Positions 12,248 to 43,632 of a stretch of 43,718 bases of DNA are shown here, one piece after another. Origin of the DNA: Thermoplasmata archaeon (GTDB taxonomy: Archaea > Thermoplasmatota > Thermoplasmata > Lutacidiplasmatales > UBA184); NCBI GenBank assembly GCA_021812305.1, contig JAKAOB010000003.1:1-43718 (forward strand), given 5' to 3'. Made by a program: the position numbers and the translations under genes. The notes beneath the pieces were generated by a model. That model saw only the letters and a program-made list of their open reading frames with translations, made no database searches and was not told the origin of the DNA. Each line of letters opens with the position of its first letter. The stretch's first letter is position 1.

Positions 12248-12308
12248 GGTGGAGTCCGGCTCACGGCCGGCCTTTATGGGGGCGGCCCGATGGCCCCCCG
12301 AGGGGTCG

Positions 12309-12746: not shown

Positions 12747-12776
12747 CGTCCGCGCGTCGTGCCCCCGACGGGGCCG

Positions 12777-12935
12777 TCAGGGGACGTCCTCGAACGGCTC
12801 GCCCTCCGACGTCCCGTCCGCGGCGCCGAGCGAGACGTCCGGCCGCACCACGAGGACCACCTCTCGCTCGTTGGCCTTGCGGGTTCCCTTGCGCTTGCGC
12901 TTGGACCGGGAGGTCCGGTGACGGGACTTCGCCAT
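12777..12935 (-). CDS. Small basic protein, 52 residues
   Basis: An ATG at 12935 opens a 52-residue frame. Residues 3-25 are almost entirely Lys, Arg, Ser and Thr, and residues 26-52 are hydrophobic then acidic, ending GEPFEDVP. The sharply two-part composition and GC-rich third positions argue for a real gene. The basic N-terminus suggests binding to nucleic acid or the ribosome; I do not recognise a ribosomal protein family. It sits just upstream of a nucleoside phosphorylase gene on the other side, with both running leftward. Confidence 0.5.
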   Translation of the reverse strand: MAKSRHRTSRSKRKRKGTRKANEREVVLVVRPDVSLGAADGTSEGEPFEDVP

Positions 12936-12992
12936 GGTTGCGTCCGTAGGCTATCGCCGGAGGGTTCGTATAGGGCACGGGTGGAGCGGGCT

Positions 12993-13850: not shown

Positions 13851-13935
13851 ACGCGTTTCGTGCTCGGAGGCCCACGAACGACGACCGCGTCCGGCATCGG
13901 GAGCCGGTGGCCCCCCGTCCCCGCTCGACGGGGCC

Positions 13936-14790
13936 CTACTGGTGCAGCGTGTAGATCGGGATGGTCGCGAGGAGCGTGATCGGGCTGGCCCCCGTATCGA
14001 GCAACTGGATACTGCAGGCGCCGGGGGTCGTGAAGCACCAGGCGGGGGCGCCGTGGAAATCGTCGAAGTCGGGGTGCCCCCAGTTCGACGCCCGCTCGAT
14101 CGGGCTGGGGGCCTCGAGCACCGATCCCTCGGAGTGGATGTAGAGGACGAAGGTGTCGCCGGGGGCGAGCAGGGTCGCGTTCGGCGTGAGCGTCTGGAAG
14201 AACCCGAGCCGGTTGTAGTAGGTGCTGAACGCCCCGCCGCCGTAGCCGCTCGCGTTGAAGTTCCCGCAGCTGCCGAGCTTCGGCGCGTTCGTGGAGATCG
14301 TCTGGGAGGACCCGGGGAACCACGACATCGACAGCAGCGAGCCCCGGACGAGGTAGGTGGTCATGGGGGTCGGGGTCGAATTGTAGCAGATGAAGTTGAA
14401 CTGGATGTCCGCCAGGGAGATCGGCTGGGTGACCTCGGTGAAGATGATCGCGGTCGCGTTCATCCGGTTGTAGGTGCCGTTGTTGCTGTACTCGCAATCG
14501 TTCCACCACGCGCGCATGTACGTGCTGTAGCGCGGGTCGTGCGAGCCGTTCCCGAGGTAGTAGGTCCACGAGTACGGCAGGTTCGGGTAGCAGTCCGTGG
14601 GGTCGCCCCAGACCGGGTAGCTCACCCCGCCGTGCGCGGCGTAGTAGATGGTGGGCGGCGTGCTCGGGGTCTGGATACGGAACGTCCACAGGACGATGCC
14701 GGCCGCCACGACGATGCCGACCATGAACAGCGTCGCGATGATCGGGGAGACCCCGCGCCGGCGCTGGTGGGAAAAGCGGTGTCGCGGCAT
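13936..14790 (-). CDS. Archaellin/type IV pilin-like secreted protein
   Basis: A 284-residue protein with a class III signal peptide: a short basic N-terminus (HRFSHQRRRG) followed by VSPIIATLFMVGIVVAAGIV. This matches the archaeal pilin N-terminal domain, cut before the hydrophobic helix by the prepilin peptidase. The remaining 230 residues are Asn-, Tyr- and Thr-rich with several Asn-X-Ser/Thr sites and a few Cys, as expected for a glycosylated extracellular domain. It would form or decorate a surface filament. An upstream in-frame ATG at 14817 adds nine residues. No assembly ATPase or peptidase gene is nearby. It is divergent from the anchored protein at 14944. Confidence 0.8.
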   Translation of the reverse strand: MPRHRFSHQRRRGVSPIIATLFMVGIVVAAGIVLWTFRIQTPSTPPTIYYAAHGGVSYPVWGDPTDCYPNLPYSWTYYLGNGSHDPRYSTYMRAWWNDCEYSNNGTYNRMNATAIIFTEVTQPISLADIQFNFICYNSTPTPMTTYLVRGSLLSMSWFPGSSQTISTNAPKLGSCGNFNASGYGGGAFSTYYNRLGFFQTLTPNATLLAPGDTFVLYIHSEGSVLEAPSPIERASNWGHPDFDDFHGAPAWCFTTPGACSIQLLDTGASPITLLATIPIYTLHQ

Positions 14791-29758: not shown

Positions 29759-29983
29759 ATGACCGGAGAATCGATGGCGGCCGGGACGACGATGACCTTC
29801 AAGACCCCGGGAACACCGGAAGGGATGCGCCGGGCGATCCTCCTGTCGATCCTGGGGCCGGTCGCGTGGTTGTGCTTTACCCTGGTCTATGTAGGGTTCT
29901 GGGCGCAGGGGTTCACCCTGTTCCAGAGCATCGTGGTCGTCCTGACCTCCCTGGTCGCCCTGGCGGGCGTCATGGGGGGGTAG
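29759..29983 (+). CDS. Small two-helix membrane protein
   Basis: A 74-residue protein from the ATG at 29759: a polar N-terminus of about 25 residues, then helix 1 (ILLSILGPVAWLCFTLVYVG) and helix 2 (FQSIVVVLTSLVALAGVMGG), ending in Gly-Gly-stop. Such two-helix proteins are common and mostly uncharacterised in Thermoplasmata. It has chromosome-like GC-rich codons and is the last gene before base composition drops, so it marks the left shoulder of the island. Confidence 0.6.
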   Translation: MTGESMAAGTTMTFKTPGTPEGMRRAILLSILGPVAWLCFTLVYVGFWAQGFTLFQSIVVVLTSLVALAGVMGG

Positions 29984-30127
29984 TACCATAGGGGGTCGAA
30001 ATGACACCCCCCACCCCTCTCACGAAGCGTCCTTCATCTCAAGGGATTGCCGCAAGCCAGTCCCGTCGCGAGCGAGTGGCTCAACGGGTCAGGCTGGAGG
30101 CGGTTCTTGCCGCGTTCGCCAATGAGC

Positions 30128-33100
30128 CTATGACGGCTCTGGGTCCCAAGCGGTCACGCCGTGAACGCCAAAAGCTAGGGTGAAACGCACTGGGTCGCCA
30201 CGATGCAATGGAACGCTACCTGGCCGTCTCGGATTGAAGAACAAATCCAGCCCGAGATTCGGAACGTTGTGCGGATAAACGGATCCGACGCTTTCGTAGG
30301 TCACTTCCTTAACCCGGCCGGTGAAAATCTTTCGATGGCCGCCCTCCCGGATGAAGTAAAGATATGGGCGTGAAATCAACTTCGGCGTCCCCCTTCGAAT
30401 CTCGCCGAGCAACCGCCTGACCTCCGCGCCTCTTTCTGCGCCGACCAACGCTGTTGCTCGCTGCACCAAGTCAAGCCAACTAAGTTGCCACCGCTTCGGA
30501 TGCTCGGAGCAGGCTCGGCCGATCATATCGGAAAGGATCACCGCCTTAGGGTACGAAGGATTGTCCGCTTTGAGTTCGGTTTCCAGGCTCGCGCGAAAAG
30601 CCGGCACGCACGGACTCTTGGCGCCTACTGCCGCTTCGAGATAGCGCCGGGCGTCTGCTATTCTATTCGACTGCTCCGCTCGCTGATACAATAGGAAATA
30701 CCCAAAACCTGTACCCTGAGACTTGAGCAGACTCTCAGCAAGGGCGTCGTCCAGTTCCCCGGCGTCGTCGGCGAGGCGTGCCATCTGGTCAGTCAGGAAT
30801 GCGTCAGTATTGCCGGACGCCTCCCATCCCTCCTGCAGCACGCCCAGCGCTTCTCCAAGCAACGAAATGCGCTTGGGTCCCTCCGTTCTGCCTGCCAAGT
30901 CACGCAGCACTCGCGCTTCAACGCCGTACGAGTGGGAATTCCATCTGGTCCCCGTCCTCGACTCGCGCAGGAGCTCCCTGATACGAAGGACCTCGGAGGA
31001 CTGTTCGAGACCGGGCAACTCCTTGCCCTCATAGCTCTTCCAAAGAGCGTCGGCGCGAGTCGTCTGAATGATCTCCAGCCGTTCAGTAGGGGGCTCCTCC
31101 ATCCGGGCGAGAGAGATCGCATCGTCCAGCGTCGCCAGCGCAGCGGCGTACTGTCTATCGTCCAGCAGCCTGATTCCCTGATGATGCCGGAGCAGCGAAG
31201 TCATTCCACGCGATTCTAAGCGTTGGAAAAGGTTGAGAATCGTCTGACGATCTGCGATTGTGTCGACTGGGGTCTCCCGCTCCTGCCGGCCAGGTCGGCC
31301 GACAAGAAGGTCGGCCACAAACTGGTGTTCCGCTCCGCTATCCAAATTGACCGCCCCCAGGATAGTCTCCAGCGCAGAGAGGATGGTTGGTCCTCCGCCC
31401 AGCTCCTGTGAAACAAGCTCGCCGAATCTGGAATGGAAAAACGAGACCGTAGGAGTGGGCGGGACCTCATCAACCGTCAAGATTTGGGCACACTCATCTA
31501 TGCGCGTGAACAGCTCTCCGTAGTCACATCTGAGTGCCTTTGCGAGGACTGGGAGCGGGACTGGAGTCCTTCCGAGGGTCGAGAGGAGGGCTAGTCTGAC
31601 TACTGCTTGCGCACCTGCGCTGAGGTTCAAGACCGACTGCCGTGCGATATCTTGGAAACTCTTCCGAGATTCGTCGACCAGTCGGTACATCAACTCGATG
31701 AACGTCCGGTCAGCGCTCACCTGTGATTCGAGTTCCGCGCGCGACCAACGGAAGGGTCGAACTGTTGGATCAAGCTGGTCGACATAGTCCGTGAACGGGC
31801 CAATTTCGTTCGCCTCAATCGAGTCCGGGACCCGAATCTGACAGACTTCGATTCCGAACTCTCGAACGCGATCCGGATCAATCGGCTCATACGCAACCGA
31901 AATCACTAGAACATCCGCAAAACCCCGCCACTGAAGAGAATTGATGAGGCTTCGAGCATTTTCGCCCCGGACCTGATCATCTAACAAGACAGTCAAAAAG
32001 GTCCGCCGATCTTCGCTCGTTGAACGAGCCAACTTACCGAACGCCACAACTGAGTCCTCATCAGGGGTGGCTGCACGCTGTCCGAGTCGAAGCCCGACGG
32101 ATGGAAACTCTCGAACTGCCGAGAATAGTGCCGCGTTGGCAGCGACTGTTTTCCCCGAGCCGGGCCGGCCGTAGAGGTGAATCAGAGCTGGTGGGCGAGG
32201 ATCTAGTGAAACCCACTTTGTAACGAAGGCTCGCTCTTGGCGTATGAGTTCGCGGTTCCACTCGAGTCGGTTCGAGTAAGGGCCTAGCTCGGACGTTCTT
32301 CCTCTGAAGAAATCCTTCGGGGGACACTTCCGTTCGAGCTCCAGCTGGGTGACTGGGTCAAACTGTCGGAGAAGGTCGGTCACCCGAGCCGCGTCTATGG
32401 AAAGGGTTCGGTCTCCAAAGGCGAGAACAAGTTGGGTCTTCTCAACGGTCCTGTCCACTTCCTCAGACAGTCGCCGAGCAAATTCGGCTGCGGGTTCGAC
32501 GATTGGTTCGATTCCTAGGATCCCGAATCGCCGCTTCCTTTCGTCGTTGGGATCGGATCGAAAAAGAGCGCGAATGGGAATCCTAGACCTCGAGGCGAGC
32601 CCTCTGATGACCTCAGCGGACTTTTCGAGGATTCCATCGTCGAAACTGTATCCGATTGCGAGAACCCCAGTGGCACGGACGAACTCGTCCAAGTGCTCGA
32701 ACATCAAATGGTTCTCGCGCTCCTTTCTGGCGATGTCCGCGCTACTGAGCGCCATCTGACCGCCTGAGTCAATTGGCGCCGTTCGGCAGCCCATAATCTT
32801 GAAGATCGGAACCGTTCCGGGGGTGACGAACATCACCCTGCGTGCATCCACGTAGACGATTGGCTTGACCATTCTCCCGTCGCGATAGTGGTCCTCGATC
32901 GCTGTGTCGAAATTAGTCGTGTAGACGGCCGACCAGGGCAGATCCAAGATCGAGCCGAGTTCAGCGCTCGCTCTGACGTTCGCGAGACGCTTTGCTACGG
33001 AAGCATACACCTCGGACCTTCGGCCGAGGCGAATGCAAATGTCATCCAAAGTATTGCGTGGGCTTTCTTGGGCCGGGACTCCCATTTCATTGGCGACCCA

Positions 33101-33214
33101 AGCCGCCAAATCTCCCCATGATGCTCCGCCGGAGTCGGCGGTCATGCCCGCTCCTACAAACAGAACGCCGCCGCCGTTGCGGATGTCCTGCGCGAGAGTA
33201 TCAATCAACCCCAA
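30128..33214 (-). CDS. SIR2-STAND-TPR protein, Avs5/DSR-like anti-phage candidate
   Basis: A 1028-residue protein with clearly lower GC than its left neighbours. Residues 1-240 are a SIR2-like domain: VLFVGAGMTADSGGASWGDL, the catalytic-Asn motif YTTNFDTAIEDHY, and LAIGYSFDDG. The usual K-x-H-G motif with the catalytic His reads FKIMG, so His is replaced by Met. A STAND-type NTPase follows with Walker A LYGRPGSGKTVAAN at about 345-355. The C-terminal 380 residues are TPR-like helices, probably the sensor. Related proteins destroy NAD+ after sensing phage; with this change NADase activity is doubtful. Start is a TTG at 33214, with no better in-frame start upstream. It abuts the casposon polymerase, both leftward. 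Confidence 0.82.
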   Translation of the reverse strand: MGLIDTLAQDIRNGGGVLFVGAGMTADSGGASWGDLAAWVANEMGVPAQESPRNTLDDICIRLGRRSEVYASVAKRLANVRASAELGSILDLPWSAVYTTNFDTAIEDHYRDGRMVKPIVYVDARRVMFVTPGTVPIFKIMGCRTAPIDSGGQMALSSADIARKERENHLMFEHLDEFVRATGVLAIGYSFDDGILEKSAEVIRGLASRSRIPIRALFRSDPNDERKRRFGILGIEPIVEPAAEFARRLSEEVDRTVEKTQLVLAFGDRTLSIDAARVTDLLRQFDPVTQLELERKCPPKDFFRGRTSELGPYSNRLEWNRELIRQERAFVTKWVSLDPRPPALIHLYGRPGSGKTVAANAALFSAVREFPSVGLRLGQRAATPDEDSVVAFGKLARSTSEDRRTFLTVLLDDQVRGENARSLINSLQWRGFADVLVISVAYEPIDPDRVREFGIEVCQIRVPDSIEANEIGPFTDYVDQLDPTVRPFRWSRAELESQVSADRTFIELMYRLVDESRKSFQDIARQSVLNLSAGAQAVVRLALLSTLGRTPVPLPVLAKALRCDYGELFTRIDECAQILTVDEVPPTPTVSFFHSRFGELVSQELGGGPTILSALETILGAVNLDSGAEHQFVADLLVGRPGRQERETPVDTIADRQTILNLFQRLESRGMTSLLRHHQGIRLLDDRQYAAALATLDDAISLARMEEPPTERLEIIQTTRADALWKSYEGKELPGLEQSSEVLRIRELLRESRTGTRWNSHSYGVEARVLRDLAGRTEGPKRISLLGEALGVLQEGWEASGNTDAFLTDQMARLADDAGELDDALAESLLKSQGTGFGYFLLYQRAEQSNRIADARRYLEAAVGAKSPCVPAFRASLETELKADNPSYPKAVILSDMIGRACSEHPKRWQLSWLDLVQRATALVGAERGAEVRRLLGEIRRGTPKLISRPYLYFIREGGHRKIFTGRVKEVTYESVGSVYPHNVPNLGLDLFFNPRRPGSVPLHRGDPVRFTLAFGVHGVTAWDPEPS

Positions 33215-33342: not shown

Positions 33343-36021
33343 CTAGCTGTGGGCGGCTCCGTTCAAGATATGGGCGACCCGCTCGAGCAGCCCTCCCCGG
33401 TACCCCCTCACGACCTCCCCCTTCCTCAGCCTCTTCCTGAGCCTCGCGAAGTTCCTCTTGTCAATCCCATGCTCAGTGGCCCAAGAGAGAGGCAGGGCGA
33501 GGATTCGTTCGGCCCAAGGAACGTAGACCTTCGCCCGTGCTCCGGTCGGACCGACGCCCAGAACCCGGGCTGTCTCGATTCGGTTCGCCTCCTTGCCGAT
33601 CCCGTGGGTCCGGGACCTTCGGACCAGGACGTTCCGCCGAACCATCCGGCCCCCCGCGTCGCGCCCGCATTTCCGGTCCTCGTGCTCCGCGAAAGCCTCG
33701 ACCACTGAGCTCCAGTCTCTCTGACCAGGTAGTCCCATGAGCGCATCCCGGCCTACGGTGTCCTCCTTGGAGAGGTAGGGGACGAGCTCGGATCTCCACC
33801 CATCAACGGCCGCAGACGGCTCGATGTAGCGAGCCGTCATGAACGAGAATGGCCGGATCGACCCGAGGCGTTTCACCCGTGGCAAGAGCATCGGGGTCGA
33901 CAGGGAGAACTGCGCCGTGGCCGGAATCCCGACGAACCGCTTACCCGCACTCGGCCCCTCCTCAATGATCGCCTCCCAGACGTGCGCGATGAACTCCTTC
34001 CGCTCCCCGGCTACCTCGAAGGATCCTAGGCCGTGGTCAGACGCGGATTTCCGAAAGACGTGGGGCCGGCCGTGACGGTCTCGGACGAAGAGGCAGTAGC
34101 GTTTACAGGAGAGGCCATAGAACGATGGGGCGACGGCCGGAGAACCCGCCGGATACTGTTCTCGCGGGGCCTTCTCGCCAGTCTCGTCCTTCAAGAAGTG
34201 GGTCGGGATGGCGTAGGGATTGAGCGAGTCAAAGACCCGAGTGACCTCCGGAGCGATTCGGGAAGGCGTGACGAAGACCGAGTCGGTGTCTTCGTAAACG
34301 ACCTCGCCGCCGTTCGACTGGACAACCACTTCTGCCAAAGCAAGCAGCAGATGCGAGGCGGAGGTGAGGGTCGCCCCGAGGAGCGGGCAGTAGAAGTCGC
34401 CGACCTCCTCCGTCTCAGAGTCCTCCCACTCGAACGGGTCGTCGGTGAGGCCGTGAATCGTTGAGGTGCCGGCCCCTCGCTTCCGGTTCACTTCAACCGA
34501 GATCCCGTAGGCCAGCGCGTTGGAGAGGATCTTCAGCCCTTGGGCGCGAGACTCCCATCCCAGCGTTTTCGTCGCCTTCTCCCGGATGCGCTCCTCGGAG
34601 AGCTTCCGGACCATGTCCTCCTCGGACCCGATGTCGACGCCGAGCAGCCGGATCGGGCGAACTGCCTGCCGGCGGACGGGCTCGAACGTGGTCGCCCGGA
34701 CGATGCGCGGGACCCGGCCCGATTGCAGCTTTGCGGCGATGAGGTCCGGAACCAGGTAACGAAGTGTCGTCCCGGGCTCCGAGGTGACATGATTCCAGCC
34801 GATGGTCGGGGGCTGCGAGGGGTCTCCGTTGTAGGTCGAACGGACTGGGAGAATCTCGCCCCGGGCCTCGACTTCGCAGAGGGTCCACATCCGGAGGTCC
34901 AGCCACGTCTCGCGACGGAGCAGGTCCGCGACTGTCAGGGAGTCCAGCCACGACCGGACCTCCCCAGTGGAATCGCGGGTCCGGAGGCGCTTGCCGGTCA
35001 GGAACTGGTCGGCGGCCAGCAGGCAGTAGAGCGATGGGAACTCGGAGGTGAAATCGAGGACGGCTACGTCAGGGACCTCGCGTCCGGCGACCCGGCACTC
35101 GACCTTACCCGCGTAGAACGCGGACATGACCCACCCGGTCCAGTCCGCCGAAAGCTGGGGTGGCACGATGCCCCGGGCGCGAAGAGCCGCCTTCGCGAGG
35201 GAAGCTGGGGAGAAGAGGCGCGTCGGGTGCTCCTCGACGCCGAAGGCCCGATACCGGGCGACGCACTTCTCGTAGAGCTCGTAGGTGAGAGCCACATCAT
35301 TGAGCGCGTAGTCGAGATACCGGGCGTCGACAGGGCCGTGGTAGTCGGTCCTGGTTTTCTTCCGCGCGCATCCGAACGCAGTCCCCGCGGACTCGAGCGA
35401 GTGCCTCTCGCCCGTCAGCACATGAACGAAGGTCCGCAGGTCCAGGAAGGCTCCTCGATAGCGGCGCCAGCGGTTCTTGGTCCCGGCGAAGGCGATGAAC
35501 GACTTTGTCGAGTCGACGCGTTGGACCCGGATGTTCGGAATGTGCCCGGACTCGGGGTCGGACCGTTGGACGAGTCGGAGCGTGAAGTGCTCCTTAGTCC
35601 CGATCCTCTCCCTGGGGGCCCAGTCGACGGCCAGCCGCGCGAGGTCGAAGGGCAGGTTGAACCCGACGACGATGGCCTGCATCTCGAGCGCCAGGGGGAC
35701 GAAGAGCTTCCGGACGAAGCGGTCGAGCGTGAGCACGTCCGCGTCGTGCGCCTTCGCCCACGCGGCAACCGACCGGGCCTCGGCCTCCGTCAGCCTTCCG
35801 GTGAAGACGATGGTCCGGCAGAGGTGTCCGAGGGCGTACTCGCGGGCGATCCCGAAGCGGAGCTCCTGCTGGAGATCCGTCGTCGTTTCGGTGTCGAGGA
35901 TGAGAACCAGATCGGCGTTGGGGGTCTCCGGTTCGGGGCGCACTCGCTTCGAGGATTGCTTGGGCTTGGAGTGGACCCGAACGTAGACCGGCGGCTCTTC
36001 GAGCGTTGCGGCTGCGTTCAT
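33343..36021 (-). CDS. Casposon family B DNA polymerase with 3'-5' exonuclease
   Basis: An 892-residue family B polymerase. The exonuclease motifs are present: LDTET (D43, E45), GFNLPFD (N122, D126) and YALND (Y238, D242). Polymerase motif A reads VLDFTSEFPSLY (D323), a variant of DxxSLYP. Motif B is K497 in LKILSNALAYG and motif C is YEDTDS (D578, D580). All catalytic carboxylates are retained, so it should copy DNA and proofread. I see no long TPR1/TPR2 insertions of protein-primed polymerases, which fits the second casposon polymerase lineage, from Euryarchaeota. Its ATG overlaps the HNH gene's stop (ATGA). Middle GC content, between host and SIR2 gene. Confidence 0.9.
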   Translation of the reverse strand: MNAAATLEEPPVYVRVHSKPKQSSKRVRPEPETPNADLVLILDTETTTDLQQELRFGIAREYALGHLCRTIVFTGRLTEAEARSVAAWAKAHDADVLTLDRFVRKLFVPLALEMQAIVVGFNLPFDLARLAVDWAPRERIGTKEHFTLRLVQRSDPESGHIPNIRVQRVDSTKSFIAFAGTKNRWRRYRGAFLDLRTFVHVLTGERHSLESAGTAFGCARKKTRTDYHGPVDARYLDYALNDVALTYELYEKCVARYRAFGVEEHPTRLFSPASLAKAALRARGIVPPQLSADWTGWVMSAFYAGKVECRVAGREVPDVAVLDFTSEFPSLYCLLAADQFLTGKRLRTRDSTGEVRSWLDSLTVADLLRRETWLDLRMWTLCEVEARGEILPVRSTYNGDPSQPPTIGWNHVTSEPGTTLRYLVPDLIAAKLQSGRVPRIVRATTFEPVRRQAVRPIRLLGVDIGSEEDMVRKLSEERIREKATKTLGWESRAQGLKILSNALAYGISVEVNRKRGAGTSTIHGLTDDPFEWEDSETEEVGDFYCPLLGATLTSASHLLLALAEVVVQSNGGEVVYEDTDSVFVTPSRIAPEVTRVFDSLNPYAIPTHFLKDETGEKAPREQYPAGSPAVAPSFYGLSCKRYCLFVRDRHGRPHVFRKSASDHGLGSFEVAGERKEFIAHVWEAIIEEGPSAGKRFVGIPATAQFSLSTPMLLPRVKRLGSIRPFSFMTARYIEPSAAVDGWRSELVPYLSKEDTVGRDALMGLPGQRDWSSVVEAFAEHEDRKCGRDAGGRMVRRNVLVRRSRTHGIGKEANRIETARVLGVGPTGARAKVYVPWAERILALPLSWATEHGIDKRNFARLRKRLRKGEVVRGYRGGLLERVAHILNGAAHS

Positions 36022-36452
36022 GCGGTCGCCTTGGCTGCTTCGGCGTACTGCGCTCGGAGCCGTTTTCCGGTCTCGTGGAAGGCGTAACCCTCGAACCGAG
36101 CCCGTTCTTCGCAGAGGTCGCTCAGCCCTCGAAGCACGAAGGTCGCCTTCAGTTCGGGCGGGTTGTTCTCCCGCTCCCAGCGTGGGTCCCAGCCATTCTG
36201 CCGTTCCGATAGCCGATTGTGACAACGCTCGCAGACAGGGACCGTGACCTCCGAGTTGAACTTCCCCGCGATGTGGTGGGCCTGAGTATCGACTCGCGAG
36301 TCGCAGACCGCGCAGCCGTTTGCCCCCTGGGCCCCCGACTTCACCCACTCGACCCACGCCGAAACAGTTCCGATCTGGCGAGGGACCCTGGCCCGGACGC
36401 CTTCGATAGCCCGGCCGAGGTTGGCAGTGGGATCGGGGACCGAGTCGCTCAT
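36018..36452 (-). CDS. HNH endonuclease of the casposon operon
   Basis: A 144-residue HNH nuclease. CAVC (C47, C50) and CERCHNRLSE (C74, C77, H78, N79) form the zinc knuckle, and AHHIAGKF (H59, H60) supplies the catalytic His pair of the beta-beta-alpha-metal fold. It would cut DNA with a divalent metal. HNH nucleases are a common part of casposons, next to the polymerase. The ATG at 36452 overlaps the upstream gene's stop and its own stop overlaps the polymerase start, both as ATGA, so translation is coupled. The C-terminal 45 residues are an alpha-helical tail rich in Arg and Ala. Confidence 0.87.
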   Translation of the reverse strand: MSDSVPDPTANLGRAIEGVRARVPRQIGTVSAWVEWVKSGAQGANGCAVCDSRVDTQAHHIAGKFNSEVTVPVCERCHNRLSERQNGWDPRWERENNPPELKATFVLRGLSDLCEERARFEGYAFHETGKRLRAQYAEAAKATA

Positions 36453-37144
36453 CCGATTTCGTCGGCCTCCTCGGGCTCCGCGTAGAGGTCGCCGAACGCT
36501 CCGAAGTCCGCCTCGGATCGTTCGAGGGCCGCGCGCAACTTCCTGGGGTCGGTTTCGAAGGTGTGGAACTTGCCGGCGACGTCGACGTACGTCCGTCCTT
36601 CGAACTCCTTGAGTCGGCTCGCGTCGCCGGTTTCGAAGTAATGGCGAACGGCGTTCGCGTAGCGAGAGAGCAGCGTCGCCGTCTTCGAGTCGCCGACCAG
36701 GAAGGACCGCCGCGCGCCATGCTCGTAGGTCTGAAGGTATCGCTGGATCCGGTCGGAGCGTGTCGCTACCCAACGGCTTCCGCGCTTCTGGAAGGCCCCG
36801 CTGGCCCTCCGAACGGTCTTGGGCGAGATCCCGGCCTTTCGGGCGAGCTTGGAGAGGGAACCCTCGCCCCGGCGCACCCGAGAGACGACTTCCAAAGCCC
36901 GTTCACGATGAGCCCGTTCGCGTGGGGTAAGCTGGGTAAAGGGAAGACGGAACGCCGGAGCCCGAGGAACAGCCGATAGCGGCCGCTGTTCAGTCCGGGG
37001 GTGCCTTCGGAGCTGACTGAGGGTCGCGGTCGGATACCGGGCGTGGGTTCGGGCGATCCTGGCGGCGTAGGGGGTTCGTTGCGGCTGCCCGGCAGCCCAT
37101 TGCTCGTAGGACGCGTACTTCCGCGAGAAACGGCGGGGAGGCAT
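36449..37144 (-). CDS. Helix-turn-helix protein of the casposon operon
   Basis: A 231-residue basic protein. A helix-turn-helix lies at about residues 95-120 (GSLSKLARKAGISPKTVRRA, of the resolvase/homeodomain-like kind). The region at about 128-190 (RSDRIQRYLQTYEHG, then SRYANAVRHYFETGD) resembles C-terminal domains seen in archaeal mobile-element HTH proteins, though I cannot name the family. It probably binds element DNA, at the ends, at the origin or at its own promoter. Its ATG lies one base after the stop of the 84-residue HTH gene, and its stop overlaps the HNH start, so all four genes form one unit. Confidence 0.7.
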   Translation of the reverse strand: MPPRRFSRKYASYEQWAAGQPQRTPYAARIARTHARYPTATLSQLRRHPRTEQRPLSAVPRAPAFRLPFTQLTPRERAHRERALEVVSRVRRGEGSLSKLARKAGISPKTVRRASGAFQKRGSRWVATRSDRIQRYLQTYEHGARRSFLVGDSKTATLLSRYANAVRHYFETGDASRLKEFEGRTYVDVAGKFHTFETDPRKLRAALERSEADFGAFGDLYAEPEEADEIG

Positions 37145-37145
37145 T

Positions 37146-37400
37146 CTACGCCCCCTCGGCGGGATTGTTCACGGGGTCCGGGGAGTTTCCCACGCCCCCC
37201 CGGGCCCTTTTCGCGGCCCAAGCCGCCCTCCGACATGTCTCGGCCTTCAGGCCGAGCCGCTGAGCGATCTCGGGCCAGGCGGCCCCGGAAGCTCGGAGCG
37301 AAGTGATCTCGCGTAGTTTCTCAGCCGTCACCTTTCGGGGGCGACCCGCTACGGTCCGCACCCTCTCGGGGGGTTCGGCCCCGCTCGCCACGTCGACCAT
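37146..37400 (-). CDS. Small HTH protein, first gene of the casposon operon
   Basis: An 84-residue protein. After an N-terminal tail, GRPRKVTAEKLREITSLRAS and WPEIAQRLGLKAETCRRAAW form a Hin-recombinase-type HTH with the GRP lead-in that inserts into the DNA minor groove. Such small HTH proteins are typical casposon passengers and probably repress the operon they head. The ATG at 37400 faces the divergent gene at 37464, with an AT-rich control region of 63 bases between them. It is followed after one base by the 231-residue HTH gene. Confidence 0.72.
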   Translation of the reverse strand: MVDVASGAEPPERVRTVAGRPRKVTAEKLREITSLRASGAAWPEIAQRLGLKAETCRRAAWAAKRARGGVGNSPDPVNNPAEGA

Positions 37401-37463
37401 TGCCCTCGGTAGGTCTATGTTTCTTCACAGTGCATAAGTAGTATAGTGACGCTACGTGAAATT
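37401..37463. promoter_or_regulatory. Divergent promoter of the casposon operon and the 37464 gene
   Basis: A 63-base gap between two divergent genes, much richer in A and T (CTATGTTTCTTCACAG and GCATAAGTAGTATAGTG) than the coding sequence on both sides. It must hold the promoters of both units and is the natural place for an operator bound by the small HTH protein. I see no clean palindrome. Confidence 0.5.
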
Positions 37464-38225
37464 ATGCCCCGACATAGCTGGTCACCCGAGGAACTGGAGG
37501 ATCGCTTCGTTCCCTGTCTCAAGGACAAGGGCCGGGGCCTGACCTACGGGAAGACGGTCGCAGCCTACGCGGAGCGATGGCGGCCGTGCTCCGATAGGAC
37601 AGCCAAGGCTCACCTCGCGATCCTGGTCCGCGGGATCGGACAAGGGACCGTCAAGGAGATTGGCCGATACCGCGGCCCCGAGGGGTTCCTCTACGGGCTG
37701 CTCAACGAGAAATCGTTCGCAGACGCGAAGGAGGCCGCGGAGATACCGCCGGACTCTACCCCGAAACCTGCCTCTATCGTCCACCTCGGCGGTCCGTATC
37801 ACGATACGCCGATGCGTCTGGAATGGACGAACTGCCCCGTTACGGCGAAGATCGTCCGAACCCAAGTCTGGACCCTCGGGCTTGCCGATTTCATGTCGTG
37901 CCCCATCTGCAACTGGTTCCACTTCCTCGGGGTCAGCCCCAAGATGAAGGACCAACGCGTCTATGCATGGCAGATGGACCCCTTGGTGAATGCCGAGGAA
38001 TACGCGGACTCGCTATCGAGGCTGTTCCGGGGTGACCCTAAGACCTTCCGGCCCCAACCCTCGCGGATCCCTCGGATGCTCGGAGGCGGCCACTACGTCG
38101 GTCTGATGTTCCGCACCTCGTGGGACTACGATCCGATGGAACGCCTCCGAGAGCTGGGGGCCAGAGAGGTGAAGGGGGACCGGCGCAGGAAGGCCAAGGT
38201 ACGGAATTCGCGGTCGAAGGCCTAA
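37464..38225 (+). CDS. Casposon-region protein with HTH-like N-terminus and Cys motifs
   Basis: A 253-residue protein from the ATG at 37464 (a GTG at 37446 is also in frame and adds six residues). The N-terminal 80 residues (WSPEELEDRFVPCLKDKG and RTAKAHLAILVRGI) look like a winged-helix DNA-binding domain. The middle has a possible zinc site (NCPVTAK, then MSCPICNWFHFLG). The C-terminus is strongly basic (KGDRRRKAKVRNSRSKA). It is probably a DNA-binding protein of the element, but I recognise no named family. It is divergent from the HTH-HNH-polymerase operon and convergent with cas1. Confidence 0.65.
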   Translation: MPRHSWSPEELEDRFVPCLKDKGRGLTYGKTVAAYAERWRPCSDRTAKAHLAILVRGIGQGTVKEIGRYRGPEGFLYGLLNEKSFADAKEAAEIPPDSTPKPASIVHLGGPYHDTPMRLEWTNCPVTAKIVRTQVWTLGLADFMSCPICNWFHFLGVSPKMKDQRVYAWQMDPLVNAEEYADSLSRLFRGDPKTFRPQPSRIPRMLGGGHYVGLMFRTSWDYDPMERLRELGAREVKGDRRRKAKVRNSRSKA

Positions 38226-38460
38226 CGCCCGCACTCACCCGCGCCCGCCCCCCGCTCGCACGCGACGCACACGCACGCAGTACACGCACGCGTAGTGGTA
38301 CGCGCAGGGACAGCTACAGGCGAATTCGGTGGGGGCGGAGTCACATAAACATGTACGTAGGAAGTGGCCAGCCCAATCTCGCCGTCTGATATATTAATAT
38401 ATATAGGACGACGAGCGGACCGCGCTCCCTATCATAGGATAAGGCAAGACTGCCCCCGAA
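38226..38460. other. Non-coding gap between convergent genes, with AT-rich tract and short repeats
   Basis: No gene is visible in these 235 bases. They hold a 10-base direct repeat, ACACGCACGC at 38269-38278 and 38282-38291, and a striking AT tract, GATATATTAATATATATAGG at 38388-38407, in otherwise GC-rich sequence. The small palindrome CCTATCATAGG lies near 38428. TAAACATGTAC at 38346-38356 is close to an inverted copy at the right edge of the island (43621-43631). The tract could be a terminator for both convergent genes or a remnant of an element end. Confidence 0.45.
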
Positions 38461-39657
38461 CTATACTATATGGGCGATACGATTCCGTATCTTACCATAT
38501 AGGCGGACCGGCTTCCCCACTGCCGCCCTCCTCTTCATGTCCCATAACCCCGCCTTCGAGATCCCGAGCTTTCGGGCTTCGGCATAGGACATTGCCGCGA
38601 CCCTCTCGGCGATGCCGGTCTCGACGTGGCCGGATTCCCCGGTATGGAACGGAACCGTATGGTGGAGCCTTCCGTTTGGTTTGGTGAGGTACCGGGCAAG
38701 ACCACGGGCAGCCTCGGTAACGAGGGACTCGTAGGAGTAGTTCCGGCCCCCGACCGCCACCTTGCGATTCATGTTGGCCGAGAGGCGGTCGATGAGCGCC
38801 CTAGCGGCGGCCGGCCGGAGTCGGACATGGTAATTCTCGGTCACGATGAAGTCCCGCTTCCGGTCGAGCTTCTTGTCCCGGAGGACTTCGAGGACCGAGA
38901 GGTCTACGAGCCAGCGGAACGGCTCTTGGAGATCGTAGACCAAGGGCAACTTCGCTGGGGATGTCTCATGAAGAAAGCCGATCTCCGGAAGCAAGCCGAC
39001 GGAAACCAAAGAGGATCGGCAAAGGGATTCGAGAAGGGAATAACCGTAGTTGAGCAGGGCATTGGTCGGGTCAGCCGCGGAGTTGTTCCAGGAGCGCTGA
39101 GGGGATCGCCGGGAGACAAAGCCCGCCGCGGGCCATAGGAATTCAACGGCCTTTGTGTACTCCTTCCACCACGCCTGGGCGACTCGGGCCTCGTAGACCC
39201 GAAGATCGTTGAGGGAGCGGCCCTGGTCGGAGCCACCCTCCTTCCGGATGGGGTCCGGTTCGACCGGGAGGGTCCGGCTCAGGTGCTCGGCAAGGGAGAC
39301 GGTCTTCGAGACCTTCTCCCGGATGAACTCGCGGGCGATCCCGAGACGGCTGGCGGGGTTCGAGTAGGCTTGGACCTGAGCGACCCTGAGCTCCCCGTTC
39401 GAGGGCCCCCGGGGCAGGATCGTGGAGAGGACCGTCCCGTTCCAGCGGAGGAGGGTTACGGGCACGTCATGGATCGCGAGGAACCGGAGCGCCTCGAAAC
39501 TGACCGACCCCGCCAGGGAGTCGACGACGACCGAGTCGAAAGGGAGCTGCTGAGGGCGGTAGGACTCCTTTCGACCCTCGGAACGCCAGTCGACTTCGAG
39601 TGTGCGGCCGTTGACTCGTAGGGACGTGCCGAAGCCGTGGAGGAGGAGGGGGCGCAT
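38461..39657 (-). CDS. cas1: Casposase: solo Cas1 integrase with C-terminal HTH
   Basis: A 398-residue Cas1. The catalytic set is intact: E156 in YEARVAQAWW, H230 in GFLHET, and D242/E245 in LVYDLQEPFR, within the familiar DPTNALLNYGYSLLE context. CRISPR Cas1 proteins usually end near residue 330; here another 50-60 residues add a helix-turn-helix (YAEARKLGISKAGLWDMKRR, then a basic tail), a hallmark of casposon Cas1. No cas2 gene and no CRISPR array are present. It should integrate the casposon at a target by nucleophilic attack of the 3' ends. It is convergent with the 37464 gene and divergent from the zinc-ribbon/Cas4-like operon. An inverted repeat covers its start. Confidence 0.92.
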   Translation of the reverse strand: MRPLLLHGFGTSLRVNGRTLEVDWRSEGRKESYRPQQLPFDSVVVDSLAGSVSFEALRFLAIHDVPVTLLRWNGTVLSTILPRGPSNGELRVAQVQAYSNPASRLGIAREFIREKVSKTVSLAEHLSRTLPVEPDPIRKEGGSDQGRSLNDLRVYEARVAQAWWKEYTKAVEFLWPAAGFVSRRSPQRSWNNSAADPTNALLNYGYSLLESLCRSSLVSVGLLPEIGFLHETSPAKLPLVYDLQEPFRWLVDLSVLEVLRDKKLDRKRDFIVTENYHVRLRPAAARALIDRLSANMNRKVAVGGRNYSYESLVTEAARGLARYLTKPNGRLHHTVPFHTGESGHVETGIAERVAAMSYAEARKLGISKAGLWDMKRRAAVGKPVRLYGKIRNRIAHIV

Positions 39658-39688
39658 ATGCTAACAACTGATAGCATACTCCCATATG
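39655..39688. promoter_or_regulatory. Inverted repeat in the cas1 / Cas4-operon divergent region
   Basis: TATGCTA (39657-39663) and TAGCATA (39672-39678) form a perfect 7-bp inverted repeat with an 8-base spacer, bracketed by two copies of CATATG (39655-39660 and 39683-39688). It covers the cas1 start codon and lies 25-60 bases before the divergent zinc-ribbon gene, so it looks like an operator, possibly for one of the element's HTH proteins or Cas1's own HTH domain. It might instead be part of a terminal repeat. Confidence 0.5.
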
Positions 39689-39712: not shown

Positions 39713-39874
39713 GTGCCTCGCACGACTTACTCGGTCACCGGGTGGGAGTGCTTGCGGTGCGGGCACAAGTGGGTTCCAAGAATCTCGCGTGAGCCGAAGC
39801 GGTGCCCGGGGTGCAAGAGCCCTTACTGGAATCGCACCCGAACGCATCCGTCGCGGCCCGTCCGTCCGGTATGA
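39713..39874 (+). CDS. Small zinc-ribbon protein heading the Cas4-like operon
   Basis: A 53-residue protein from a GTG. GWECLRCGHKW (C13, C16) and RCPGCKSPYW (C31, C34) make a classic zinc ribbon; the remaining tail is basic and Pro-rich. Similar short ribbons occur widely in archaea as probable DNA- or RNA-binding partners. Its TGA overlaps the ATG of the Cas4-like gene (ATGA), which argues that it is real and co-translated. It may be an adaptor or regulator of the nuclease module. Confidence 0.7.
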   Translation: MPRTTYSVTGWECLRCGHKWVPRISREPKRCPGCKSPYWNRTRTHPSRPVRPV

Positions 39875-40887
39875 CAAACAGCAAGGGATTGCGGCGGAAG
39901 AGTCTCCGTCGCTTTCGTTCAACGAAGTTCGCTAAGGTCGGGGCGAAGGGTCCGACTCCCCGGGTTGGCCGCTTGATCAAGGCGCCAGAACCATCGAATC
40001 CACCGCCAGACTTGCCACTTGGCTCGGACGGGGTCAGCCCGACCGATCTACGCCTCGTTGAGCTCTGCCCATTACAACTCTGGCATGCAGCGCGATGGCC
40101 GTCGGAGACGGCTGCCCCTTCACTGGGCCTGGCGATTGGACAAATCGTGCATGCCGCCAGAGAGGCGATCTCGATGGAGCAGCGAGGAATCTACCTCCAA
40201 GCAGAATCTGAATCCAAGTTATGGAATGAAGACGTTGAGGCGCGGCTGAGAGCGCTGATTGAGTCTACCTTCGAGCGCCACTACTACCTCCATGTCTTCG
40301 GCGACCCGGCCGCTCGGGCAAGGTCAGAATGGACCGGCCGCCTCCTTGGCATGGAACGGGGGAGGGCCGATAGGGCTCGTGACGCTTGGAATCTTGGGCT
40401 GAGGGGCGTCGACCTCGCGAACGCCTGCACACCAGAGCGAACCGAAGCAGAATGGTTCGACTCGGGCCTGAGGATGCACGGATTCTGCGATGAGCTCTGG
40501 CGGGACGGCACGAAGTCCCGGCCTGTCGAGCTAAAGACGAGCCCACCGAATGATGCGAATCGGTCAGCAAACCGGTACCAGGTCGCGGCGTATGCATACT
40601 TGGCTCAGAACGTAGAAGGACTGGTGGTGAGTACGTGCGAAGTGCAATATCTTCGCGAGGGCTCCTCCGACAGATTCAGGTTCGGGCCCGCCTGGGAAGG
40701 TAAAGTGCGTCGGCAAGCCCATCGAGTGATGCTGGTGCGTCACTCGCTGGATCCGCCGACCGGTGCCCCGTCGCCACAAACATGTGGGTGGTGCCCGTTC
40801 CAGCAAGTATGCCCCCAGTCCGCCGCACCGTCGGTTGATGATGCTTTCGCTAGCCTCAAGGTTTTCGACGACTTCGGGGGCCGTTGA
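39871..40887 (+). CDS. Cas4-like PD-(D/E)XK nuclease with 4Fe-4S cysteines
   Basis: A 338-residue nuclease of the Cas4/RecB-nuclease group. C66 (ELCPLQLWH) with C305, C308 and C314 (TCGWCPFQQVC) give the four Fe-S-cluster ligands. The active-site set is H94 (GQIVHAA), D207 (HGFCDELW), E220-x-K222 (VELKT) and Q236 in the RYQVAAYAYL helix. It is expected to trim single-stranded DNA ends. It is longer than CRISPR Cas4 (about 200 residues); the extra part is a basic N-terminal tail and an insert at about 100-190. The ATG at 39871 overlaps the zinc-ribbon stop; its own stop overlaps the TTG of the HerA-type gene. Lower GC than the chromosome. Confidence 0.85.
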   Translation: MTNSKGLRRKSLRRFRSTKFAKVGAKGPTPRVGRLIKAPEPSNPPPDLPLGSDGVSPTDLRLVELCPLQLWHAARWPSETAAPSLGLAIGQIVHAAREAISMEQRGIYLQAESESKLWNEDVEARLRALIESTFERHYYLHVFGDPAARARSEWTGRLLGMERGRADRARDAWNLGLRGVDLANACTPERTEAEWFDSGLRMHGFCDELWRDGTKSRPVELKTSPPNDANRSANRYQVAAYAYLAQNVEGLVVSTCEVQYLREGSSDRFRFGPAWEGKVRRQAHRVMLVRHSLDPPTGAPSPQTCGWCPFQQVCPQSAAPSVDDAFASLKVFDDFGGR

Positions 40888-43157
40888 TTAATGTGACCGC
40901 GAGCGACTGCCGGCAGCAGGCAAGGCGCGTTGCAGAAAGTGTCTGGCGCGCGCTCCATCGGTCTCGGCCCTTGAGTTCAGAAGATGTGCAGCGGAAGGTT
41001 CGGGAAATCGGACTGCTCGAGTCGTCGAGGCTTGGCGAGCCAGATCATGACGCGCTAGCCCAGTTCTGCGAGTGGCTTTCATCGAGGATCATTCAGGAGG
41101 CGGGACCAGCAGGCAAGTATCGACAGCTCGACGTACACCGAGGAGTCGTGAGACTCTTCGGGCAATCCCCTTCCTTCTCCGATCCTGAGTTCGACATAGT
41201 TTCGAACATCGGAAAACAGACTTCGGTGTGGCGGTTCGACTCGGTCGGTAGCAGGCGCGACCTCCATGTCCTGACTCCTGGGACGCTCGAGCGCGTTTCC
41301 AGAGGCACCGAGGGACCTGTCTCGATCACGCAGGTAGTCCTTGGCAACCGGACGCAAGCGCTGCAGGTCGAGTCATTTGTGGCTGCACCCGAGAGGCATG
41401 AATCGCGAGGTGCAAGCGAGCAGGTGAAGGAGGACGCCAGAGATATCCCAGCCAAAGCTTCCGAGAGAAGAAGTCCTCCTGATGACGGCTCGAGGGAAGG
41501 CTCGACTCTCGACTCTGCTGCGAAGTCCCCAGCGGGCGGGGGTAACCGAATCGAAGCTTCACGAGGAAGCGCGAGACAAGTGGACTCAACTCACACCCCT
41601 ACCGAGGACGGGGTGATCGGCGCCATCGGGCCGTCACCGCCGACAATGAGCCGTGCCGGCGGGTATGTTGTAAACGGCATCCTCTATGTGCCCGAGATAC
41701 CGAACATTGCGGTCACGAAAGGGCTCCCGGTTATCGCAGAGTCACATAGCGACCCGTCTAACCCGAAATCTCCGCTCATTCGGGTGTTCGCCCGAATCGG
41801 GCAGACCACGGTCGAAACCTCAAGCACGATTGAGCGAGCTCCAACGAGCACGACGTACGTTGATAGTACGTTCGAGATCTTGCGCGAGGCATACCCTGCG
41901 TCCGAACAGGGCGCCGAGATTCGCCCTTGGACCCCGAAGGCAATGGGAGGTTACCGTCTGCGGTGGCCGCGTACTCAAGACCTTTCCCTGATGGGCTTCC
42001 CCGACTCTGGCGTCTGCCTCGGCTGGCAGGAGGGGGTACCCACAAGGCTCCAGTATTGGTTCCCGGTGGAGGCAATCTACAGATCGCTGTTCGTTGTCGG
42101 AGGAATGGGCGGAGGAAAGACCAACTTCATTTCGTGCCTCGCCCGCGCGATCGCAAACCGAGATCCGGCCGCCTTCCCTCATAGCCTTCGGCCGGCGGTT
42201 GTAATCCTCGATGCTGAGGGCAGAAAGGAGTACGCAGACCTAGCGACCGAAGTCCGGCCCGAGCTTCGCCGCTCCCTCGAGGAGCTCGGAATCGCCCCTC
42301 ACGGCGTGAGGGATTTCAGATACCACTCGATAGGGACGAAGGCTCGAAGCTTCCGGTTTGCAGACATTCCGCCTCAGGATACCGTGGTGTTCCCCGCCAC
42401 GCTTCCGACAAAGTCGGAGAGGGCGTGGATTCAGGGTGCTGAACTCTTCTGGAGGCATGCCCAAGCTGCCCAAAGATCGGTGACGGCGGCCCAGGCGACC
42501 GCTGCCATCGCTGGAGTGAACCTGCCGCTCGGAATCAACACTGCGATGAGAGCAGCAATTGTACGCGCTGCGTCGGATAGCTGCTGGGATGTGTTTGATC
42601 TTCCCGAGACCGAGCCCCTAACTGTGGACGAGCTCCTACAGCCGGGCCGGGTGTCTGTCGTCGATGTGTCCAACCTCCTGGGCGGGGACAGAATCCGCGC
42701 CGCGGGCCTCGCTCTCCTGACACTCTTTGACGTGGCGAAACGCCGGCAGCCGCAGCACCCGTGCCCGATCATCTTGATCGTAGACGAGGCGACGCGCTTG
42801 GTCCCCGCTGGATTTAGCGGCGCGAGCGCCAAGGACTATACCGACAAGATGGGAAAGTGGCTGACAGAGATTCTTCATCGTGGGCGACGCGCGAGCTACG
42901 GTCTCGTCTTGGCAACTCAATACCCCGACGACGTGTTGAGGGGCCTGGCCGACCAGCCCCAGACCAAAGTGGCCTTCGCGCTGGCCCCTCGCTACGACCG
43001 GTGGGTCGACACGAACTTCTCAGACGGTGCGGGTGAACGGCTCCGGGAGCTGGCTTCTCCTGGAGTCGGATACGTGGCCCGCACCGCACGCGTGGAGGGC
43101 GATCCCCAAGGCGTCCCACATCCGGCCACCGTGATTCACTTCCCACAGGTACGGTAG
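40884..43157 (+). CDS. HerA/FtsK-type P-loop ATPase, likely DNA translocase
   Basis: A 757-residue protein. Residues 1-150 are a helical and beta N-terminal domain of unknown kind. Residues about 175-255 are a polar, low-complexity linker. The ATPase has Walker A VVGGMGGGKTNFIS (about 403-416), an acidic VVILDAEGRKEY near 435, Walker B PCPIILIVDEATRLVP (about 627-642), and a late LVLATQYPDDVL with polar sensor residues, in the HerA-FtsK order. It probably forms a hexamer that pumps DNA. HerA ATPases usually pair with a nuclease; here the Cas4-like and NYN genes are the candidates. The TTG at 40884 overlaps the previous stop; a GTG at 40893 is an alternative start. Confidence 0.83.
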   Translation: MINVTASDCRQQARRVAESVWRALHRSRPLSSEDVQRKVREIGLLESSRLGEPDHDALAQFCEWLSSRIIQEAGPAGKYRQLDVHRGVVRLFGQSPSFSDPEFDIVSNIGKQTSVWRFDSVGSRRDLHVLTPGTLERVSRGTEGPVSITQVVLGNRTQALQVESFVAAPERHESRGASEQVKEDARDIPAKASERRSPPDDGSREGSTLDSAAKSPAGGGNRIEASRGSARQVDSTHTPTEDGVIGAIGPSPPTMSRAGGYVVNGILYVPEIPNIAVTKGLPVIAESHSDPSNPKSPLIRVFARIGQTTVETSSTIERAPTSTTYVDSTFEILREAYPASEQGAEIRPWTPKAMGGYRLRWPRTQDLSLMGFPDSGVCLGWQEGVPTRLQYWFPVEAIYRSLFVVGGMGGGKTNFISCLARAIANRDPAAFPHSLRPAVVILDAEGRKEYADLATEVRPELRRSLEELGIAPHGVRDFRYHSIGTKARSFRFADIPPQDTVVFPATLPTKSERAWIQGAELFWRHAQAAQRSVTAAQATAAIAGVNLPLGINTAMRAAIVRAASDSCWDVFDLPETEPLTVDELLQPGRVSVVDVSNLLGGDRIRAAGLALLTLFDVAKRRQPQHPCPIILIVDEATRLVPAGFSGASAKDYTDKMGKWLTEILHRGRRASYGLVLATQYPDDVLRGLADQPQTKVAFALAPRYDRWVDTNFSDGAGERLRELASPGVGYVARTARVEGDPQGVPHPATVIHFPQVR

Positions 43158-43158: not shown

Positions 43159-43632
43159 ATGCTGGTAACAGAGGACTCACAAGACAGGGTAATGGTCTTC
43201 ATCGATCTTGCAAATGTCCAGCGCTCGGTTCGATCCAAGGAGTCTAGTGGTTTCCGGCTGGATTACTACAGACTAGTGAAGGAGCTCGTCGGCCCACGGC
43301 GGCTAATCGGTGCGTACGTCTTCGATGCAGTCTCCTCGGCAGATCGAACATCTATAGAGCCCAAGAAACGCCTTCACGACGCCCTTCGGTACCTTGGATT
43401 CCGCGTAGTCGCAAGAGAAGTTGCCTTCGAAGAGGAGGGCCAGCAAAAGGAGGTGGATGTCGCCCTCGCCACCGAGATGCTCGTGGCCGCCCTCAGAAAT
43501 GCGTTCGACGTCGCGATTCTTGTTTCCGGAGATCGCGACTTCGTCCCGGCGGTAGAGCGGCTGAGGACAGAGGGAAAGCGCGTCGAGGTTGCCTTCTTTG
43601 GCGGATCGGTTGAAAACGAGGTACGTGTTTAG
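43159..43632 (+). CDS. NYN-domain (LabA-like, PIN-type) nuclease, possibly truncated
   Basis: A 157-residue NYN domain: VMVFIDLANVQ (D16, N19), KEVDVALATEML (D100) and ILVSGDRDFVPAVERL (D125, D127) supply the acidic metal-binding pocket of this RNase-like fold. It starts one base after the HerA-type stop, so it belongs to the same operon. LabA-like proteins normally continue past this point with a last helix of the kind 'L..AAD.FI.L'; here the frame stops right after VEVAFFGGSVENEVRV. That stop is 20 bases from the end of a GC-rich host gene, so the C-terminus may have been cut at an element boundary. It would cut RNA or single-stranded nucleic acid. Confidence 0.85.
   Translation: MLVTEDSQDRVMVFIDLANVQRSVRSKESSGFRLDYYRLVKELVGPRRLIGAYVFDAVSSADRTSIEPKKRLHDALRYLGFRVVAREVAFEEEGQQKEVDVALATEMLVAALRNAFDVAILVSGDRDFVPAVERLRTEGKRVEVAFFGGSVENEVRV

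What the first reader, a model, noticed from the sequence alone, without database searches (positions are those of the whole stretch)
33343..39657. A casposon gene set in a GC-rich Thermoplasmatota-like archaeon
Seen: one coupled operon of small HTH, larger HTH, HNH nuclease and family B polymerase, a divergent DNA-binding-type gene, and a solo Cas1 with all catalytic residues (E156, H230, D242/E245) plus a C-terminal HTH. There is no cas2 and no array. Known: this combination defines casposons, Cas1-driven self-replicating transposons seen as ancestors of CRISPR adaptation. Inferred: this is a casposon, probably of the euryarchaeal polymerase type, in a lineage where I am not aware of a described copy. 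The polymerase, HNH and Cas1 all look intact, so it may still be active.
Basis: partly seen in the sequence, partly recalled or inferred. Interest (0 to 1): 0.9.

Follow-up and report, generated by a model that had tools for sequence, protein, structure and literature searches.

The report
Casposon carrying phage-defence genes, unusual site
This is a casposon, a jumping DNA element that moves with the enzyme Cas1 (the ancestor of the CRISPR memory-writing enzyme), found in a GC-rich soil-type archaeon; it is larger than first described, carries phage-defence-like genes, and sits in a protein gene whose end looks like its usual tRNA target.

Summary
The casposon reading is correct, but the coordinates are too narrow. 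Cas1 (38461-39657) groups with casposases, not CRISPR Cas1. It shares a C-terminal HTH with the PolB, and the HTH-HNH-PolB operon matches the casposon of an Aciduliprofundum boonei-sized genome. These are family 2 hallmarks. The element's left end is at 29,977, not 33,343. Synteny with a relative lacking the insert stops exactly there, inside a small membrane-protein gene, and a ~37-bp terminal inverted repeat (TIR) begins. The same TIR, inverted, closes a sister casposon beside tRNA-Val. The element runs off the contig at 43,718, so its right end is not seen. It therefore includes a SIR2-STAND gene and a Cas4-like nuclease/HerA/NYN set. A sister-genus copy is complete (9.9 kb, 37-bp TIRs, 14-bp target duplication at tRNA-Val). 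A second genome shows the opposite junction at the same membrane-protein gene, with an identical 14-bp flank. That site resembles the tRNA-Val 3' end. The host is a Thermoplasmata archaeon; casposons were already known in that phylum, so this is a new member of a known kind. In passing I found a second, protein-primed-polymerase casposon kind in the same order, with 79-bp perfect TIRs.

The parts
29759..29976 (+). host gene (small membrane protein) interrupted by the insertion; lacks the C-terminal part present in relative G066
   Evidence: Homology to G066:C3 ends at 29976; G066 protein continues AAWSWYGLGHKARSLSA; G044 carries the other half next to a TIR
29963..29976 (-). target-site copy (left), CCCATGACGCCCGC read on the minus strand
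   Evidence: Identical 14/14 to the flank at the opposite junction in G044; same length as the true TSD of the complete G008 element
29977..30013 (+). left terminal inverted repeat GGGGTAGTACCATAGGGGGTCGAAATGACACCCCCCA
   Evidence: 34/37 identical, inverted, to the tRNA-Val-side end of the G056 casposon; next best match in that locus 21/37
30128..33214 (-). cargo: SIR2 domain protein with NTPase region (STAND-like, ThsA-type SIR2)
   Evidence: PF13289 1.6e-9; PADLOC ThsA 6.5e-13
33343..36021 (-). casposon PolB with C-terminal HTH
   Evidence: 34% identity, E 1.6e-137 to PolB of the A. boonei-like casposon; 60-70% to G008/G056 elements; HTH shared with Cas1
36018..36452 (-). HNH nuclease
   Evidence: phrog_96 HNH 9e-4; 62/51/32% identical to HNH of G056/G008/A. 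boonei-like casposons
36449..37144 (-). larger HTH protein, conserved casposon gene
   Evidence: 44% to the A. boonei-like element (E 7e-39), 57-62% to G008/G056
37146..37400 (-). small HTH protein
   Evidence: 56% to the equivalent gene of G056; weak HTH Pfam hits
37464..38225 (+). divergent gene, putative DNA-binding protein, function unknown
   Evidence: no family hit; 37% to a gene next to a solo Cas1 in G089
38461..39657 (-). Cas1 casposase with C-terminal HTH
   Evidence: PDB 6opm M. mazei casposase 3.2e-66 over residues 1-394 versus best CRISPR Cas1 3.3e-24; tree
39713..39874 (+). small zinc-ribbon (ZBD) protein
   Evidence: CxxC...CxxC ORF, conserved upstream of cas1 in G022, G046 and others
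39871..40887 (+). cargo: PD-(D/E)XK nuclease, Cas4-like with a 4-Cys pattern
   Evidence: PF12705 2e-12; PF01930 Cas4 25.5 bits, over cut-off 22.7; TIGR00372 below its cut-off
40884..43157 (+). cargo: HerA/FtsK-like ATPase
   Evidence: PADLOC mad8 1e-12, HerA 8e-9
43159..43632 (+). cargo: NYN-domain nuclease
   Evidence: PF01936 1.5e-25

Best explanation
The contig segment from 29,977 to beyond its end at 43,718 is one family 2 casposon. Mechanism by analogy with the A. boonei and M. mazei casposons (inferred steps marked): the Cas1 casposase, bound through its HTH, joins the 3' ends of the TIRs to a ~14-bp target and duplicates it (activity inferred, geometry shown). The element's own PolB would copy it (inferred). 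The HNH nuclease, HTH proteins and zinc ribbon assist or regulate (inferred). The usual target in this order is the 3' end of tRNA-Val genes: acceptor strand CCCA, then 10 nt, then TIR (shown). Here the element entered the 3' end of a membrane-protein gene whose sequence resembles the tRNA-Val end (junction shown, recognition inferred). It carries variable defence-type genes between its core and its ends.
For: Cas1 falls with casposases, split from CRISPR Cas1 at 99/99 support, and its best solved relative is the M. mazei casposase. Cas1 and PolB share a C-terminal HTH (score 75; 0 of 2000 shuffles; best local match of the two whole proteins), a family 2 hallmark (PMC4046053). PolB, HNH and large HTH match, in the same order, the casposon of G138 (1,486,778 bp). 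The left end is fixed by loss of synteny with G066 at 29,976, by the TIR shared with G056 (34/37) and by G044, which has the reciprocal junction and the same 14-bp flank. A close relative, G008:C347 4345-14199, is complete with 35/37 TIRs and a 14-bp TSD at tRNA-Val. Many tRNA-Val genes in the order are followed by such TIRs; the pattern scan gave 42 matches in 31 of 106 genomes versus 4 control matches. GC falls from ~72% to ~60% at 30.0 kb and stays there to the contig end. dN/dS 0.13-0.30 for core genes.
Against: The right TIR and TSD copy are not in the window and the right host flank is not in the assembly, so this copy's full extent is inferred. PolB has no Pfam family match. No within-species comparison of filled and empty sites. 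The genome is a 149-contig draft. dS above 1 is close to saturation.
Confidence: 0.93

Rival explanations
1. The casposon proper ends just right of cas1 (about 39.9 kb), and the nuclease/HerA/NYN genes belong to a pre-existing defence island or to another element inserted next to it.
For: The sequence upstream of cas1 differs in every relative beyond the zinc ribbon; no TIR is seen at the far side.
Against: If the element ended at 39.9 kb, the rest of the membrane-protein gene and the CBS gene of the host locus (present in G066, G044) should follow, and they do not. No TIR-like sequence near 39.9 kb exceeds background. In G056 and G022, 4-5.5 kb of cargo lies between cas1 and the TIR. GC stays low to the contig end. 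Tandem insertions do occur in the order, so this is not excluded.
Confidence: 0.12
2. A domesticated or dead Cas1-solo locus: the genes persist but no longer move.
For: Relics with stop codons and PolB fragments are common in the order; no second copy of the element in this genome.
Against: All core ORFs are intact, active-site residues kept, dN/dS 0.13-0.30, recognisable TIR and a sharp junction, and related copies at different loci.
Confidence: 0.15
3. A CRISPR adaptation module that lost cas2 and the array.
For: Cas1 and a Cas4-like nuclease are adjacent.
Against: Tree places it with casposases at 99/99; HTH domain; PolB; TIR; no cas2 in the genome; no array in 29.5-43.7 kb.
Confidence: 0.01

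Closest known systems
Family 2 casposons (AciBoo-C1 of Aciduliprofundum boonei; M. mazei casposon; Krupovic et al. 2014 PMC4046053; Hickman et al. 2020 PMC6977970; Beguin et al. 2019 PMC6614799)
   Same: Cas1-HTH casposase, PolB with the same HTH, HNH, large HTH protein, TIR, 14-bp target duplications in the closest relatives, tRNA 3'-end targeting in relatives; PolB 34%, Cas1 40%, HTH 44% identity to a genome of A. boonei size.
   Different: tRNA-Val rather than tRNA-Pro (A. boonei) or tRNA-Leu (M. mazei) as main target; this copy lies in a protein gene; defence-type cargo on both sides; cas1 lies on the same strand as the HTH-HNH-PolB operon instead of divergent; GC-rich Thermoplasmata host.
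Family 1 casposons (Nitrosopumilus and relatives; PMC6563490)
   Same: Cas1 plus PolB plus TIR/TSD; protein-coding genes used as targets (EF-2, phosphoribosylamine-glycine ligase); Cas4 homologues as cargo.
   Different: Family 1 Cas1 has no HTH and its polymerase is protein-primed; neither holds for the window element. A family-1-like kind does occur in sister genomes (noticed in passing).
CRISPR Cas1 (adaptation)
   Same: Cas1 fold and active-site residues.
   Different: No Cas2, no array, extra HTH, separate clade.

Membership tests
Family 2 casposon | Cas1 of casposase type with complete active site | tested here: met
   E156/H230/D242/E245 invariant; tree 99/99; 6opm best
Family 2 casposon | HTH domain fused to the C-terminus of Cas1 | tested here: met
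   alignment with 6opm runs through residue 394
Family 2 casposon | Similar HTH at the C-terminus of PolB | tested here: met
   score 75, 0 of 2000 shuffles
Family 2 casposon | PolB of the family 2 casposon lineage | tested here: met
   34% over ~794 residues, E 1.6e-137, to PolB beside the A. boonei-like casposase. No polymerase tree and no test of the PolB3 relation.
Family 2 casposon | HNH nuclease and two HTH proteins | tested here: met
   the small HTH matches only G056, so its orthology to the second family 2 HTH is not settled
Family 2 casposon | Terminal inverted repeats | tested here: inconclusive
   left TIR present and matched by an inverted copy in G056; right TIR lies off the contig; both TIRs present in the close relative G008
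Family 2 casposon | Target-site duplication | tested here: inconclusive
   one copy in the window; identical 14 bp at the reciprocal junction in G044; complete TSDs in G008, G032, G020
Family 2 casposon | No cas2 or CRISPR array | tested here: met
   (draft genome, 79.7% complete)
Family 2 casposon | No other recombinase or transposase | tested here: met
   none among the ten predicted proteins of 30.0-43.7 kb
Family 2 casposon | Integration/excision activity | not testable with these tools
   needs biochemistry or reads
Family 1 casposon | Protein-primed PolB and compact Cas1 | tested here: not met
   Cas1 has an HTH; PolB relates to the family 2 type
CRISPR adaptation module | Cas1 in a CRISPR clade with cas2/array | tested here: not met

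The most novel reading that the evidence does not exclude
Casposons in this GC-rich Thermoplasmata order act as site-specific carriers of phage-defence genes. They insert chiefly at tRNA-Val 3' ends, but also repeatedly at one protein gene whose end mimics tRNA-Val. They coexist there with a second casposon lineage (protein-primed PolB plus HTH-less Cas1) of a type so far reported only from Thaumarchaeota.
Probability: 0.5. Interest if true: 0.68.

Novelty: new member of a known kind. Interest (0 to 1): 0.55.

Why it matters
Casposons are seen as the source of the CRISPR adaptation machinery, but few are known and only two casposases (A. boonei, M. mazei) have been studied in depth. This order supplies a large natural series: intact and decayed copies, tandem arrays, both junctions, several tRNA targets and one protein-gene target. 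That makes target recognition by Cas1 without Cas2 testable by comparison. Defence-type genes were found in five of the better-preserved elements, linking casposons to the spread of immunity genes beyond CRISPR. The coexisting protein-primed kind would extend that type beyond Thaumarchaeota.

Tried and rejected
Generic inverted-repeat search in the window gave only background; the end was found by synteny instead. Search for a right TIR in 30.1-43.7 kb: nothing above the control region. Search for the right host flank in the same genome: absent from the assembly. Phage, plasmid and viral-contig searches for PolB, Cas1 and the second kind: no relatives. AlphaFold model of PolB: mean pLDDT 34, unusable, so no fold search. 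CRISPR origin rejected. The idea that the block is fixed at one locus was rejected: relatives sit at tRNA-Val (CAC, TAC, GAC), other tRNAs and the membrane-protein gene.
Full report
1. Observation. The gene set is real. Reading the minus strand there is a coupled run of small HTH (37146-37400), larger HTH (36449-37144), HNH (36018-36452) and PolB (33343-36021). A divergent gene lies at 37464-38225(+) and Cas1 at 38461-39657(-). Cas1 matches PF01867 at 5e-48 and is the only Cas1 in the 1.87-Mb, 79.7% complete assembly; no Cas2 was found and no array in 29.5-43.7 kb. E156, H230, D242 and E245 are invariant among relatives. PolB has no Pfam match but shows the exo I, A, B and C motifs of family B.

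2. Kinship. The closest solved structure is the M. mazei casposase (6opm, E 3.2e-66 over residues 1-394, HTH included), against 3.3e-24 for the best CRISPR Cas1. In a maximum-likelihood tree of 24 Cas1 sequences all CRISPR Cas1 form one side at 99/99, and the window protein sits with casposases of sister genomes (100/99), then A. boonei-like and M. mazei casposases. Cas1 and PolB end in the same HTH domain (score 75, none of 2000 shuffles; the best local match between the two whole proteins), a hallmark of family 2 (PMC4046053). PolB, HNH and the larger HTH match, in the same order, the genes beside the casposase of G138 (34%, 32%, 44%).

3. Boundaries. The block described is the core of a larger element. 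Window 26.7-29.98 kb is collinear with the relative G066, and homology stops at 29,976, inside a 90-aa membrane-protein gene that is complete in G066. From 29,977 starts GGGGTAGTACCATAGGGGGTCGAAATGACACCCCCCA. The same sequence (34/37; next best match 21/37) lies in inverted orientation at the Cas1-side end of the casposon of G056, 10 nt after a tRNA-Val gene. G044 has a matching TIR on the other side of the same membrane-protein gene, with an identical 14-bp flank CCCATGACGCCCGC. This makes an assembly artefact at this junction unlikely. No right TIR exists in the window and GC stays near 60% to the contig end, against ~72% in the host part. The element therefore runs off the contig and is at least 13.7 kb long; this last step is inference.

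4. Proof of mobility in the nearest relatives. G008:C347 holds a complete element at 4345-14199 with 35/37 TIRs and the 14-bp duplication CCCATCCGAGCTTG at tRNA-Val(CAC); its Cas1 is 78% and its PolB 60% identical to the window's. G032 has a decayed copy with both ends. G020 has two copies in tandem at tRNA-Val(GAC) with the 14-bp CCCATGCCCCCACA repeated. The arrangement GCCCA-N10-GGGGTAGTACCAATT was found 42 times in 31 of 106 genomes of the order, against 4 matches for the reversed control pattern. The 14-bp duplication and the tRNA 3' end agree with experimental work on A. boonei and M. mazei (PMC6614799, PMC6977970). The loci differ between genomes, so the block is not a fixed host locus.

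5. The unusual site. The target in this copy is a protein gene. In G044 the sequence just outside the duplication is CCAGGCCGCGCCCA, 12 of 14 identical to the tRNA-Val(GAC) 3' end; only 3 places in that 10.8-kb contig reach that score, among about 21,600 positions on both strands. The T-loop motif that the A. boonei enzyme needs (PMC6614799) is not present there, so a secondary, tRNA-like target is an inference of moderate strength. Two genomes carry a TIR at this site, so it was used more than once or inherited.

6. Cargo. Left of the core lies a SIR2-STAND protein (ThsA-like SIR2, 6.5e-13). Right of it lie a Cas4-like PD-(D/E)XK nuclease, a HerA-like ATPase and a NYN nuclease. Sister elements carry a type III restriction-modification pair (G056), a type IIG enzyme (G022) and AbiV (G008, G033). 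Restriction and methylase genes in casposons were noted in 2014 (PMC4046053), so this extends a known tendency. Whether these genes defend is untested.

7. State. Core genes show dN/dS of 0.13-0.30 against sister elements (dS above 1, near saturation), so they were kept under selection. Activity is not shown.

8. Novelty. Sister records are named 'Thermoplasmata archaeon'. I found no paper in the held library that describes casposons in this order; most subscription journals are not held.

9. In passing, a second kind of casposon turned up in the same order: Cas1 without HTH, tail to tail with a PF03175 (protein-primed type) polymerase. The copy in G023:C4 has 79-bp perfect TIRs and a 12-14-bp duplication; that in G029 has 72-bp TIRs at 96%. 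It recalls family 1, reported as thaumarchaeal (PMC6563490). I could not compare it with the Nitrosopumilus Cas1.

Noticed in passing
L087 8530-14282 (G023:C4:18529-24281); L083 5318-10078 (G029:C11); also L085, L086, L084, L082: A second casposon kind in the same order: compact Cas1 without HTH plus a DNA_pol_B_2 (protein-primed type) polymerase and small genes upstream, with 79-bp perfect TIRs and a 12-14-bp duplication in G023 and 72-bp TIRs in G029. Resembles family 1, reported only from Thaumarchaeota; its Cas1 groups with casposases.
   Followed up: partly
L083, L084, L085, L086: In G029, G050, G038 and G051 the HTH-less Cas1 lies next to the same host genes (ribbon-helix-helix gene, an adenosyltransferase-like gene, YchF-like GTPase), suggesting a preferred non-tRNA target or vertical inheritance.
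   Followed up: no
G000:C133 (L056 around 6338-7817): A decayed second element in the window's own genome at tRNA-Val(TAC): a different TIR class (GCGCTATACTACGGAGGCCCGTAAGTAGG) with a PolB C-terminal fragment. The same TIR class follows tRNA-Val/Pro/Ile in G040, G058, G067, G039, G048.
   Followed up: partly
L207 6741-9403 (G020:C119): Tandem casposon ends at tRNA-Val(GAC), with TSD CCCATGCCCCCACA on both sides of a 2.65-kb element followed directly by a second TIR.
   Followed up: yes
L095 7215-7350 (G023:C1): Two oppositely oriented casposon ends about 70 bp apart, near a tRNA-Val gene and a PolB fragment: a probable decayed tandem array.
   Followed up: no
window 39713-40887: A Cas4-like nuclease with a 4-Cys pattern, divergent from cas1 with a zinc-ribbon gene between: a Cas1-Cas4-like neighbourhood outside CRISPR.
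   Followed up: partly
window 39657-39680: Palindrome TATGCTA...TAGCATA just upstream of and overlapping the cas1 start, conserved in G022 and G046: a possible operator.
   Followed up: no
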